From assembly GCA_016744395.1 (NCBI GenBank), contig JADGEK010000033.1, forward strand, positions 5,056 to 46,187: a stretch of DNA of 41,132 nucleotides, given 5' to 3'. Shown here one piece after another: positions 21,969-26,145 of the stretch. Each line of letters opens with the position of its first letter. The stretch's first letter is position 1. Source of the DNA: Gammaproteobacteria bacterium (GTDB taxonomy: Bacteria; Pseudomonadota; Gammaproteobacteria; GRL18). The position numbers and the translations under genes were made by a program. Below the pieces are notes generated by a model. That model had not been told where the DNA came from, ran no database searches, and saw nothing but the letters and a program-made list of their open reading frames with translations.

Positions 21969-24167
21969 GTGTTGACAGAAAAATTAAAAAAAACCATACA
22001 AACGGCCTATTCTCAAATTTTAGAAAGTAAAGAGATCAAGGCAAGATATGGTCAAAGACTTATGATAGCAGATATTGCCAGAACCTTAGGCAACATCGAT
22101 CGCGACAACCCAAACCAAGCTCATATCTGTACATTAGAGGCAGGCACAGGCACAGGCAAAACAATTGCCTATATTCTAGCCGCTCTCCCTATTGCCAAAG
22201 AACACAAAAAGAAGCTTATCATCTCGACGGCGACCATCGCGTTACAGGAACAAATACTTCTAAAAGATCTACCCGATATACACCGCCATAGTGGTCTAAA
22301 TTTCTCGTTTACTCTGGCAAAAGGTCGCAAACGATATGTGTGTCTACACAAGCTCGATAATTTTATTGTTCATAAAAACCAATCTGAATTACCACTAGAC
22401 ATACCTGCAAATGAAGTCCTTCTAAACAATAAAGATGATATGAAACTTTATGAAGCACTTAATCAGGCATGGCACAATAAAACCTGGGATGGCGAACTTG
22501 ATAGCTGGGAAGATTTTATTCCTCACAGCAGCTGGTCACCATTGACTTCTGATCAACATCAATGTACAGGTAAACGTTGTTCATTCTATAACGAATGCAT
22601 TTATTTTAAAGCTCGAGAATCAGTATTTAAGGTCGACTGTATCATTGCGAATCATGATCTTGTGTTAAGTGATCTCAATATGGGTGGCGGTTATATATTA
22701 CCACCACCTGAAGAATGCATTTATATTTTTGATGAAGGTCATCATTTACCTTTAAAAGCAATCAATCACTTTAGTTATTCATTTCATATTAACACAACGC
22801 TCAAGTGGCTTGAGCAAGTGAACTCAACACTGAATAATTTTGCCTCATTGGCAAAGCCACCCGCTCAAATCCAACAACTCATTAATCAGTTTCCTGAACA
22901 GGCAAAAGAAATTTCAACTGAAATAAACCACCTTGATAGTATTGTTGGTCAATTTGAATTTCCCGAAAACCGTTTTGCTTCACAATCCATGAGTCCAACA
23001 GGTAAATCACAGGAACAGATCTTACGATTCGAATTTGGCCAAGTACCTGATGTATTAAAAGTACAATGTGAACAGCTTCTCAAACAATTTGAAAAACTCG
23101 CGGGTCAACTTTTACATATCAATACCGTGTTAAAAGAGACTCTGGAAGGTGAAATTACGGGTTTAAAACCAGAAGTGGCTGAACAGTGGATGCCAGCTTT
23201 AGCACCGATGGAAGGTCGTGCAACTGCAGCAATGAACCTATTTGAGTTTTTTACCAAACAAGACAAACAGGGCCAGCCACCCAATGCACGCTGGTTACAT
23301 AAAAATGAGAGTTCTAATTCCTTTGCCCAAAGTAATGAAGTACAAGGAATTGAATTATCCTGCAGTCCAATCCTGGCGGCAAATACTCTTGAACAGATAC
23401 TCTGGTCACAATGCTATGGGGCAGTTGTCACCAGTGCCACAATTGCAGCATTGGGCAGTTTTGATCGTTATGTCTTAAATTCTGGAGTACCTGGCTTTTT
23501 TAATATCTTACCAAGCCCTTTTAACTATCAGGAAAATGTTCAATTCATTGTCCCCAAAATGCACAGTGAAGCAACGCAATATCAATCTCATACAGATGAA
23601 GTCGTTGAAATATTAAATAAGATTATTGATCCTTTAAAAGGTACTTTAGTGTTATTTGCTTCTAAAAAACAAATGAGTGACGTCGAATACGAGTTACTTC
23701 GCAGTGATGATATTTGGAAAAAATTATTACTCACTCAAGGCCAAAGAAATAAGCAAGTCATTATTAATGATCACAAAAAACAAATAGATAAGGGTAAAGG
23801 CAGTGTAATCCTGGGTCTTAATAGTTTTGCGGAAGGTATTGATCTCCCAGGAGAATATTGTGAGCATGTCATTATTGCTAAGCTCCCTTTTTCTGTTCCC
23901 AATAATCCTGTGGATGCTGCACTGACTGAATGGATTGAGTCACAGGGTAGGAATGCATTTATGGAAATTGCAGTACCTGATGCATCCATTAAATTAGTTC
24001 AGGCCTGCGGACGATTAATTCGTAAAGAAACCGACACAGGCAAAATCACTCTTTTGGATAAAAGAGTCATCACTAAATTTTATGGAAAAAAAATCCTCAA
24101 CTCCCTGCCGCCGTATAAACTAATGTTGAATGTTGAATTGAAATCAAAAACAAATCGACTTATATAA
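21969..24167 (+). CDS. dinG: DinG-type ATP-dependent DNA helicase with an iron-sulfur cluster
   Basis: A 732-residue superfamily 2 (XPD-like) 5'-3' helicase for DNA repair and R-loop or fork clearance. Motifs: Walker A EAGTGTGKT (57-65), four Cys of the 4Fe-4S cluster (C125, C199, C204, C210), the DEGH box (255-258), TSATIAALGSF, GTLVLFASKKQM and the C-terminal QACGRLIRKETDTG. The frame opens only just before the start: an in-frame stop lies at 21954-21956, and the first usable codons are GTG (21969) or TTG (21972). No ribosome binding site precedes them. It converges on the LplT-like gene, with a hairpin repeat between them. Confidence 0.93.
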   Translation: MLTEKLKKTIQTAYSQILESKEIKARYGQRLMIADIARTLGNIDRDNPNQAHICTLEAGTGTGKTIAYILAALPIAKEHKKKLIISTATIALQEQILLKDLPDIHRHSGLNFSFTLAKGRKRYVCLHKLDNFIVHKNQSELPLDIPANEVLLNNKDDMKLYEALNQAWHNKTWDGELDSWEDFIPHSSWSPLTSDQHQCTGKRCSFYNECIYFKARESVFKVDCIIANHDLVLSDLNMGGGYILPPPEECIYIFDEGHHLPLKAINHFSYSFHINTTLKWLEQVNSTLNNFASLAKPPAQIQQLINQFPEQAKEISTEINHLDSIVGQFEFPENRFASQSMSPTGKSQEQILRFEFGQVPDVLKVQCEQLLKQFEKLAGQLLHINTVLKETLEGEITGLKPEVAEQWMPALAPMEGRATAAMNLFEFFTKQDKQGQPPNARWLHKNESSNSFAQSNEVQGIELSCSPILAANTLEQILWSQCYGAVVTSATIAALGSFDRYVLNSGVPGFFNILPSPFNYQENVQFIVPKMHSEATQYQSHTDEVVEILNKIIDPLKGTLVLFASKKQMSDVEYELLRSDDIWKKLLLTQGQRNKQVIINDHKKQIDKGKGSVILGLNSFAEGIDLPGEYCEHVIIAKLPFSVPNNPVDAALTEWIESQGRNAFMEIAVPDASIKLVQACGRLIRKETDTGKITLLDKRVITKFYGKKILNSLPPYKLMLNVELKSKTNRLI

Positions 24168-24198
24168 GCACTTCTATAAGATATTCAGATTAAAGGAA

Positions 24199-24290
24199 AG
24201 TCCGTATCAGAGCAGAGAATGTTTGATTTGTTCGGACTTCGTCAAATCACAAAACAAAACATTCTCTGCTCTGATACTCTGTATTTGTTG
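24199..24290. repeat. Hairpin repeat element, copy A (after dinG)
   Basis: Perfect 21-base inverted repeats (24204-24224 and 24257-24277) enclose an inner 6-base stem (GATTTG 24225-24230, CAAATC 24243-24248) and a 12-base loop. The stretch from the loop through the right arm to about 24290 matches copy B (25721-25803) closely, with the identical core CGTCAAATCACAAAA at 24240-24254. Paired changes between the copies keep the stem intact. It lies between the converging dinG and LplT-like genes. No T run flanks the stem, so it is not an ordinary terminator. Confidence 0.85.
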
Positions 24291-24331
24291 CTTAGGAAAA
24301 ATTATTCAGATGGCAAATATTGCTTTTGCAG

Positions 24332-25654
24332 TTAATTCAACATTATCTTTCTCACGGCAGCTGAAAAACGCCAGAATAAAAAAGTAAAGACTGCAATATT
24401 TGTTATTGCAATCAGTGCAAACAAAGTATGCAGTGACACGCCATTATCAAGTAAAAGCATGGTTGCGATGGCTGAAAATACCATGAAGAGTGCGTTGGTA
24501 ATATTGTTTGCAGCAATGGTTCTTGAGCGTGTTTCAATTGCACTGTGCTCTTGAAGAATAACGTACAGTGGGACAATGTATAATCCACCCGCAGCACCTA
24601 GTAATAGAACATCAATTAAAACATGAGCGGTTAAAGGTTGAAAAAACATAACTTTCCAGGAAACTAATTCAGAGGCACTGGCATTGTGATTAATGAGGGC
24701 CAACTGATCACTCACCCAATATAAGTCAAAAGCAATCAAGCTAATTCCAATAGCGCCAATGATTATCCATTTTATACTCTTGCTTAAAGTGACTGATTTA
24801 CCCGCTATGATTGAACCAATTCCAATTCCTATTGAAAAAAGTGCCAATAATAATGTAATTACCTGCTCCTTAGCATGCAAAATATTCTGTGTGAATTCTG
24901 GTAAAGGTAGTAACGATAACATTGTTGCCCCAATGAACCAGAACCAGGAGATAGCAATAATAGCACCTAAAATCAAACGAGACTTAAATGCTGCAACAAG
25001 AATATTCCATGTTTGTGAAACGATATTAAATTTAATAATTAATTGCTCATCAGCAGAAGGAGCAGATGGTATTTTTCGACTGCTTATCCAACCTAGAACA
25101 GCAACACTTATCACTAAAGCACTGACATAGATACGTCCAAAGTCTTTATCCATAATGAGGATACCACCCACAAGGGTACCTAATAAAATAGCAAGGAAGG
25201 TCCCCATTTCAATAATCGCATTGCCCTTTAATAATCCATTTTCAGATAAGTGTTGAGGTAAGATACTGTATTTTACTGGTCCAAATAAGGAAGATTGACA
25301 CCCCATAAAGAATAAAACTGATAATAAAAACCAAATATTCTCAAAGTAAAATCCTAATGCAGCTAAAAGCATAATATTTATTTCACCAATCTTAATCATC
25401 CGTATCAGTTTCGATTTTTCAAATTTATCGGCTAATTGCCCTGCAAGTGCAGAAAAAAGAAAGAACGGTAGAATAAATATGCCGCCACTCAGCGGTATTA
25501 ATAATTCAATCGATAGGCTTGTATAAGAAGCGGCATTAATGGTTACTAGTATAATTAATGCATTTTTATAAAGATTATCATTAAACGCACCTAGAAATTG
25601 AGTCCAAAAAAGAGGTGCGAAATATTGGCTGGAAAGTAAAGAACTAAAATTCAT
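24332..25654 (-). CDS. MFS transporter, LplT/Aas-like lysophospholipid transporter family
   Basis: A 440-residue polytopic membrane protein with about 12 hydrophobic segments. The N-terminus (FWTQFLGAFNDNLYKNALIIL), the loop ALAGQLADKFEKSKLIR and the block QSSLFGPVKYSILPQHL are typical of the LplT group and of the transporter half of Aas-type fusions, which flip lysophospholipids across the inner membrane for re-acylation. No acyltransferase or acyl-ACP synthetase (PlsC/Aas) is fused or adjacent, so the substrate is uncertain. The gene stands alone, converges on dinG, and is bracketed by two direct copies of a hairpin repeat, one past its stop and one about 70 bases before its start. Confidence 0.8.
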   Translation of the reverse strand: MNFSSLLSSQYFAPLFWTQFLGAFNDNLYKNALIILVTINAASYTSLSIELLIPLSGGIFILPFFLFSALAGQLADKFEKSKLIRMIKIGEINIMLLAALGFYFENIWFLLSVLFFMGCQSSLFGPVKYSILPQHLSENGLLKGNAIIEMGTFLAILLGTLVGGILIMDKDFGRIYVSALVISVAVLGWISSRKIPSAPSADEQLIIKFNIVSQTWNILVAAFKSRLILGAIIAISWFWFIGATMLSLLPLPEFTQNILHAKEQVITLLLALFSIGIGIGSIIAGKSVTLSKSIKWIIIGAIGISLIAFDLYWVSDQLALINHNASASELVSWKVMFFQPLTAHVLIDVLLLGAAGGLYIVPLYVILQEHSAIETRSRTIAANNITNALFMVFSAIATMLLLDNGVSLHTLFALIAITNIAVFTFLFWRFSAAVRKIMLN

Positions 25655-25720
25655 TGATATACCTATTAAATATGGCTAAATAGCGGTTCCGAAGTTATAA
25701 ATAAATTCAAAGAAAATTTG

Positions 25721-25803
25721 CATAAGAGCAGGCAATATATTATTTTGCTCAGACTACGTCAAATCACAAAATAATAGATTGCCTGCTCTTATACTCCGTA
25801 TTT
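25721..25803. repeat. Hairpin repeat element, copy B (upstream of the LplT-like gene)
   Basis: Inverted repeats of 26 bases with one mismatch (25722-25747 and 25767-25792) enclose a 19-base loop. It has the same orientation, loop and right flank as copy A, with CGTCAAATCACAAAA at 25757-25771. The shared arm segment is AGAGCAG; the bases beside it differ from copy A, but in pairs. It may contribute to the upstream region of the LplT-like gene on the minus strand. An IS200-type end lies about 25 bases to its right. Confidence 0.85.
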
Positions 25804-25825
25804 ACAATTCAAGAACAGCTAAGTA

Positions 25826-25860
25826 AAGAATCCATCTTCTTAGAAGGTGGTTTTGTTTTT
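25826..25860. mobile_element. Probable right-end hairpin of a decayed IS200/IS605-type element
   Basis: A short hairpin (CCATCTTC 25832-25839, GAAGGTGG 25843-25850, one T-G pair) flanked by AATC and TTTTG looks like the subterminal palindrome that IS200-group elements carry past the transposase stop. The transposase remnant at 25933-26145 reads toward it. On the plus strand the stem is followed by TTTTGTTTTT, so it could also stop transcription. I could not find a matching left end. Confidence 0.5.
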
Positions 25861-25932: not shown

Positions 25933-26145
25933 CTAATCGTTCTTGTTGCTTTCAAGTTTTTCCTGGAATTTTACAGACTTTCTGATCATTTCTGCATCAA
26001 GGCCAACGGTATCAACACAATAACCCTTAGCCCAGAAATGGTTACCCCAGTGTGAGAAAAGATTTTCCAGTCTGTCAGGAGTCACCCTACCTGATTTAGA
26101 AATGAAAAGAATGAGTTTTAGAAAGGCTAAGAAAGGTTGACTCAA
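25933..26145 (-). pseudogene. C-terminal remnant of an IS200/IS605 Y1 transposase (TnpA)
   Basis: This 70-codon frame ends with the conserved C-terminal block of IS200-type transposases (GNHFWAKGYCVDTVGLDAEMIR). Full-length proteins of the family have about 130-150 residues. The N-terminal half with the metal-binding HUH motif is missing, and the sequence upstream of 26145 does not restore it in any frame I read. The helix that carries the catalytic Tyr reads MIRKSVKFQEK, with Ser where active relatives have Tyr. Both changes point to a dead copy. The first 25 or so residues do not resemble the family and may be out-of-frame sequence. Confidence 0.75.

What the first reader, a model, noticed from the sequence alone, without database searches (positions are those of the whole stretch)
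24199..25803. Two copies of a hairpin repeat with covarying arms bracket a transporter gene
Copies A (24199-24290) and B (25721-25803) share orientation, loop and right flank (core CGTCAAATCACAAAA) and fold into long stems of 21 and 26 bases. The stems differ at matched positions in a way that keeps pairing: C-G (24208/24273) in A is A-T in B, A-T (24216/24265) is G-C, and G-C (24217/24264) is C-G. Three double changes with the pairing intact argue for selection on structure, either as RNA or as a single-stranded DNA signal. I do not recognise the family. The copies lie on either side of the LplT-like gene, and copy B is beside a dead IS200-type element, so a non-autonomous mobile hairpin is one explanation.
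Basis: partly seen in the sequence, partly recalled or inferred. Interest (0 to 1): 0.75.

Follow-up and report, generated by a model that had tools for sequence, protein, structure and literature searches.

The report
Jumping hairpin with a protected loop
The two hairpins are worn copies of a small, likely jumping, DNA element found about 30 times in this bacterium's genome; across related genomes its stem letters change in matched pairs while its loop hardly changes, so the hairpin is probably read as a folded strand, likely RNA, rather than being mere debris.

Summary
A and B are two decayed members of a family with 30 distinct places in this genome at E<1e-7 and matches in 10 of 15 other genomes of the genus. 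The full element is about 155 bp with ends CTAAATAGCTGTTCC..., shared with IS630-type (DDE_3) transposase elements, one with an open frame in a congener. One copy has filled and empty sites; A and B are absent where relatives keep the gene junctions. I read it as an IS630-type MITE, not an IS200 product. New is the inside: a ~25-bp stem rewritten while pairing is kept (94.3% of 599 cells; 20 of 25 pairs changed on both sides), around a conserved loop. In four same-site insertions shared by species, loop columns vary 3 of 91 against 12.1 expected from flanks, and 11 of 20 varying stem pairs show two Watson-Crick types. Mismatch polarity points to the complementary strand as the folded one, with results against it too. 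Template switching probably copies changes between arms; loop constraint argues for selection besides. RNA versus single-stranded DNA, and any partner, are open.

The parts
24159..24309 (+). Copy A, whole element with decayed ends (orientation by the loop GCTCGGAC strand)
   Evidence: ends set by eye against L013, L014, L017
24204..24224 (+). Copy A, left arm of the stem
24225..24256 (+). Copy A, loop region with the conserved GTTCGGACTTCGTCAAATCAC
24257..24277 (+). Copy A, right arm of the stem
25676..25826 (+). Copy B, whole element; left end CTAAATAGCGGTTCCGAAG, right end decayed
25722..25747 (+). Copy B, left arm of the stem
25748..25766 (+). Copy B, conserved loop
25767..25792 (+). Copy B, right arm of the stem
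24332..25654 (-).

Best explanation
A and B are decayed copies of a likely IS630-moved miniature transposon whose inner hairpin keeps a nearly fixed loop and a freely rewritten but still paired stem, likely because one strand of it is read as a folded molecule (probably RNA) while template switching in replication probably copies changes from one arm to the other. Shown: the repeat family; ends shared with an IS630-type transposase element; a filled and empty site; stem covariation within and between genomes; compensated changes in same-site orthologous copies; a slow loop; a mismatch bias that favours the complementary strand. Inferred: that the IS630-type enzyme moves it, that something recognises the fold, that this happens as RNA, and that template switching supplies the paired changes. 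Predicted fold on the complementary strand: long stem, asymmetric internal loop 5'-GAUUU / 5'-YGA (room for tandem G.A pairs), a 3-bp mini-stem and a 3- or 4-nt end loop.
For: Family: 30 places at E<1e-7 in the own genome, 10 of 15 other genus genomes. Ends: 24 matches to CTAAATAGCTGTTCCTAAA at up to 3 mismatches against 2 for the reversed-pattern control; two such ends enclose DDE_3/HTH_33 pieces on C72 and a 329-codon open frame in G005. Empty site: G012 and G004 lack 156 bases at the L180 site of G005. Covariation: 94.3% of 599 cells paired, 20 of 25 pairs with changes on both sides, 0 of 500 shuffles as high, slid controls at most 45.6% paired. Same-site orthologs: loop 3 of 91 columns variable, 12.1 expected, Fisher p 0.0033; 11 of 20 varying stem pairs with two or more Watson-Crick types. 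Tree of 96 copies: loop 3.87 changes per site, arms 7.7-7.8, spacers 11.6-13.4. Polarity: A.C over G.T mismatches 63 to 30 distinct events, p 0.0008, 55 to 29 on the tree, p 0.006; loop-closing pair C-G 44, C.A 35, T-A 18, T.G 0 of 97, i.e. always G-C, G.U or A-U on the other strand. Complementary strands of L012, L231 and L217 fold alike. Template-switch marks: 5 of 97 copies with switched flanks or inverted loop.
Against: The mismatch bias in stems rests on G>A (33 to 11), not on T>C (22 to 18), and the loop also shows G>A over C>T, 27 to 13, so biased mutation could cause it. It does not turn with gene direction: A.C to G.T is 17 to 11 where genes run with the loop strand and 16 to 5 where they run against it (Fisher p 0.36), which an effect in host transcripts would predict. 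Ortholog group G3 has 5 varying pairs and none with two Watson-Crick types. Young copies often carry single mismatches: within clusters 54 distinct single against 31 double events. The spacer rates are inflated by comparing without gaps. No expression data; no partner known; no Rfam match at gathering score.
Confidence: 0.6

Rival explanations
1. Neutral palindrome: the arms stay complementary only because DNA polymerase switches template between them; the hairpin has no function and rides in an ordinary MITE.
For: Arm homogenisation and spacer inversion by template switching are known (PMC8794818 abstract; PMC8604942 passages). 5 of 97 copies have an inverted loop or a flank of the other side's type. 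Adjacent transversional pairs differ between G015 and the other three species of ortholog group G1.
Against: It does not explain the slow loop (3 of 91 against 12.1 expected; 3.87 against 11.6-13.4 changes per site) or the closing pair with 35 C.A and 0 T.G.
Confidence: 0.2
2. Single-stranded DNA hairpin: the fold is read as DNA, for example by a replication or transposition enzyme, and serves the element's own spread.
For: The mismatch bias is intrinsic to the element and not tied to gene direction; G.T wobble and tandem G.A also form in DNA (recalled). An IS200-type remnant lies beside B.
Against: IS630-type transposition acts on double-stranded ends (recalled) and the ends are conserved terminal repeats. 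Compensation continues after insertion in three of four ortholog groups, when mobility no longer matters to the host.
Confidence: 0.15
3. The hairpin is kept as a transcription terminator or 3'-end stabiliser behind genes.
For: 84 of 86 copies with gene context lie outside reading frames, 18 between converging and 8 between diverging genes. In 54 co-directional gaps the median distance is 52 nt to the upstream stop and 106.5 nt to the downstream start.
Against: No conserved T-run beside the stem in the copies read. A terminator needs no fixed loop. Insertion bias or selection against promoter hits explains the placement as well.
Confidence: 0.05

Closest known systems
RUP of Streptococcus pneumoniae, a MITE proposed to be moved by IS630-Spn1 (PMC2229807, passages)
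   Same: Short intergenic repeat, terminal repeats like those of an IS630-type element, TA target, long stem-loop in the transcript.
   Different: Here an inner hairpin keeps its loop while the stem is rewritten. I did not compare the sequences.
ERIC and Correia/NEMIS elements (PMC2229807, passages)
   Same: 100-200 bp MITEs whose transcripts form long stems; proposed effects on mRNA through RNase III (NEMIS) or RNase E (ERIC).
   Different: In those the stem is described as formed by pairing of the two ends of the element; here it is an inner stem with its own conserved loop. No processing is shown here.
CIR repeats of Caulobacter and Brucella (PMC2229807, passages)
   Same: A motif is kept exposed in a hairpin loop of a small repeat.
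   Different: CIR have two arms and a GANTC loop motif; here one stem and GCTC...AAATCRC.
REP palindromes, GTAG and CGTC families (PMC3733652, passages)
   Same: Many-copy palindromes with differing stems and loops.
   Different: REPs there have stems of 5-13 bp and a terminal GTAG or CGTC tag; here about 25 bp and IS630-type terminal repeats.
RNA hairpins maintained by template switching (PMC8794818, abstract and opening)
   Same: Multi-base compensatory change explained by copying from one arm to the other.
   Different: That work is on RNA genes; here it is a mobile intergenic element.

Membership tests
IS630-type MITE | Terminal inverted repeats shared with an IS630-type element | tested here: met
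   Ends CTAAATAGCTG[AT]TCC[AG]AAATGGTGTACA of L305/L306 match the element's ends
IS630-type MITE | Transposase with DDE_3 domain in the genome or a relative | tested here: met
   DDE_3 and HTH_33 on decayed C72 pieces; 329-codon open frame in G005
IS630-type MITE | Insertion at TA with TA duplicated | tested here: inconclusive
   TA at the empty site in G012 and at both edges in G005, but no TA at the same spot in G004; C outside the left TA in 43 of 48 and G outside the right TA in 35 of 38 ends found by a pattern
IS630-type MITE | Mobile: filled and empty sites | tested here: met
   156 bases absent in G012 and G004 at the L180 site
IS630-type MITE | Moved in trans by the IS630-type transposase | not testable with these tools
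   Needs a transposition assay
REP / RAYT palindromes | Terminal GTAG or CGTC tag next to a short stem | tested here: not met
   Bases next to the stem are mostly CCG and CTCA, stem about 25 bp; definition from PMC3733652 passages
Integron attC site | RYYYAAC / GTTRRRY core at the stem base (recalled) | tested here: not met
   By reading of the stem bases; no attC program was run
Known Rfam family | Match at gathering score | tested here: not met
   0 matches in the window; 15 sub-threshold hits at the hairpins, 14 of them to microRNA families, taken as chance

The most novel reading that the evidence does not exclude
A transposon-borne RNA motif: IS630-type transposition seeds the same loop-recognised RNA hairpin, mostly just behind genes, across a genus, and the motif (GAUUU/YGA internal loop, covarying mini-stem, disposable stem sequence) is kept after insertion because an unknown factor binds it, giving many transcripts a shared handle.
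Probability: 0.3. Interest if true: 0.75.

Novelty: new variant of a known kind. Interest (0 to 1): 0.55.

Why it matters
It offers same-site orthologous copies in which compensatory change, template switching between arms and loop constraint can be told apart in natural bacterial DNA. If the loop is bound, it is also a way in which a miniature transposon could spread a regulatory RNA part through a genome.

Tried and rejected
IS200 as mobiliser: only a remnant lies beside B, and the family's ends are terminal repeats like those of an IS630-type element. Promoter in the loop (TTGACG on the complementary strand): absent from the second loop type GCTCATATTGGCATAAAATC, rejected by reading. Host-transcript reading of the mismatch bias: it does not turn with gene direction. 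Kink-turn: the bulge is on the wrong side of the G.A pairs (recalled geometry). Transversions among tree-inferred double changes (77 of 112) as proof of template switching: saturation gives much the same, so not used. Spread beyond the genus: no match in plasmids or phages with one 161-base query; 0 in viral contigs with two exact loop patterns; one loop-motif hit in a betaproteobacterial MAG lacks the stem. Paper searches for bacterial MITEs with covarying hairpins or conserved loops and for Thiohalomonas with miniature inverted repeats (0 papers): I saw the listings only, and no title there describes this family; subscription papers are mostly not in that library. A further search brought the template-switch papers.

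Rows dropped before counts: of 130 loci (30 own, 100 from relatives) 22 failed the loop filter or lay too near an end. Of the other 108, 4 that returned a neighbour or the same place twice and 9 with indels were dropped. The own C37:14790 copy fell out because its locus returned its neighbour; A and the own C150:6838 copy were added back, giving 97. A was then left out of the stem counts because an indel shifts its register; include it, so one search's 101 to 33 mismatch count is not used (in one search A is a cluster of one and adds no event). Of 19 second-type loci 18 were read and 17 used. Gene context was available for 86 of 125 copies. One search does not list all matches; I fetched 100 from relatives.

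Full report
Observation. The two hairpins exist as described. A has perfect 21-nt arms; B has 26-nt arms at 96% complementarity. Both fold far better than shuffled sequence (z -8.5 and -8.2, 0 of 200 shuffles). Rfam has no match at gathering score in the window.

Family. A 61-base piece of A gives 26 matches in the own genome at E up to 10, some of them chance or the same place twice. A covariance model from 24 copies (R1) finds 30 distinct places at E<1e-7 and one weak one (150 of 3208 first-look candidates were scored, so this may be a lower bound). In 40 genomes including the own one, 10 of 15 other genomes of the genus have matches, 1 of 8 from other genera of the family has weak ones, and 0 of 16 outside the family have any. 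All 24 genomes held for the family give 12 with a match at 1e-5. Named records with the exact loop pattern are mostly MAGs of uncultured Gammaproteobacteria, one deposited as Thiohalomonas sp.; the one betaproteobacterial record has the loop without the stem.

What the element is. L013, L014 and L017 show the whole unit: CTAAATAGCTGTTCCTAAA, a spacer, the hairpin, and the inverse of the same end. That end also encloses a decayed element on contig C72 with DDE_3 and HTH_33 pieces, and its relative in G005 has a 329-codon open frame between such ends (L306). IS630-type elements insert at TA, often in CTAG (recalled); C lies outside the left TA in 43 of 48 and G outside the right TA in 35 of 38 ends found by a pattern. 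At the L180 site of G005, both G012 and G004 lack 156 bases while flanks match at 71-81%; TA is at the empty site in G012 but not at the same spot in G004. In six relatives with the helicase-transporter junction and four with the transporter-oxidoreductase junction in hand, R1 finds nothing; the distances are too great to read an exact empty site for A or B. I file the element as an IS630-type MITE; that the transposase moves it is inferred.

Structure. On 24 copies 94.3% of 599 cells pair against a shuffled mean of 70.4%; slid controls reach at most 45.6%; 20 of 25 pairs change on both sides; the covariation score is 0.635 against 0.177, 0 of 500 shuffles as high. The stem can be wholly different with the same loop: L237 keeps GCTCATATTGGCATAAAATC with a stem unlike its relatives'. 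Two loop types share CTC and AAATC around different mini-stems; L217 keeps only the layout. The complementary strands of L012, L231 and L217 fold to one plan: long stem, internal loop of 5 against 3 or 4 bases, 3-bp mini-stem; L191 folds somewhat otherwise at the tip.

After insertion. Flank comparison found four insertions shared by species: G1 (G005, G012, G004, G015), G2 (G005, G012), G3 (G003, G014), G4 (own genome, G004). Flanks vary in 268 of 2031 columns; loops vary in 3 of 91 where 12.1 are expected (Fisher p 0.0033; flanks include coding sequence; two of the three loop changes are one compensated mini-stem pair in G4). Of 20 varying stem pairs 11 show two or more Watson-Crick types, 8 one type plus a mismatch, 1 mismatches only; G3 has 5 of the second kind and none of the first. 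So pairing is largely kept after insertion in three of four groups.

How changes pair up. Template switching between arms is a known source of multi-base compensation and spacer inversion (PMC8794818: abstract and opening; PMC8604942: passages). The family bears its marks: by the flank test, L101, L167 and L177 have the hairpin inverted against the flanks, and L153 and L166 have the same type of flank on both sides, 5 of 97. Adjacent transversional pairs differ between G015 and the other species of G1. Paired change alone is therefore weak evidence of selection. The loop is stronger: on a tree of the copies it changes 3.87 times per site, arms 7.7-7.8, spacers 11.6-13.4 (spacers compared without gaps, so inflated).

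Polarity. Single-arm mismatches on the strand with GCTCGGAC are more often A.C than G.T: 63 to 30 distinct events, 55 to 29 on the tree; polarised inside clusters it is 23 to 14. On the other strand A.C is G.U. At the loop-closing pair the other strand has G-C, G.U or A-U in 97 of 97. Spacer and loop changes polarised by cluster show no such bias, 33 to 36. Against this: on the tree the stem bias rests on G>A (33 to 11) and not T>C (22 to 18), and the loop too shows G>A over C>T, 27 to 13; and the bias does not turn with gene direction. Biased mutation or a DNA form remains possible.

Placement. Of 86 copies with gene context 84 lie outside reading frames called by a simple length rule: 31 and 23 between co-directional genes, 18 converging, 8 diverging, 4 with one side unknown. 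In the 54 co-directional gaps 44 copies lie nearer the upstream stop than the downstream start (medians 52 and 106.5 nt).

Verdict. The MITE part is firm. A selected, strand-specific fold, probably RNA, is my preferred reading at about 0.6. What reads it is unknown.

Noticed in passing
L295 (G008), between the transporter and oxidoreductase orthologs: A different long palindrome with ends like CTATTCAGCGTATT lies at the junction where the window has copy B; R1 does not match it.
   Followed up: no
L184:231-310: A second repeat family, often as inverted pairs, also in G001 and G006 where R1 finds no hairpin of the present family.
   Followed up: no
L184 and L207, right of the hairpin: About 60-70 bases beside the hairpin are present in G005 and G012 but not in G004 and G015.
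   Followed up: no
window 25933-26145, minus strand: Remnant of an IS200-type Y1 transposase beside copy B, just under the Pfam cut-off (22.5 against 23 bits).
   Followed up: partly
G008 loci such as L151, L160, L161, L274: Many G008 copies lie at contig ends, so the repeat probably breaks the assembly and is undercounted.
   Followed up: no
L012 / own contig C150:6838-7050: Two family members of opposite orientation lie about 110 bases apart; G004 has only the first at that site.
   Followed up: partly
L108 (own contig C180): A loop GCTCATGACTGCGTCAAAATCGC that looks intermediate between the two loop types.
   Followed up: no
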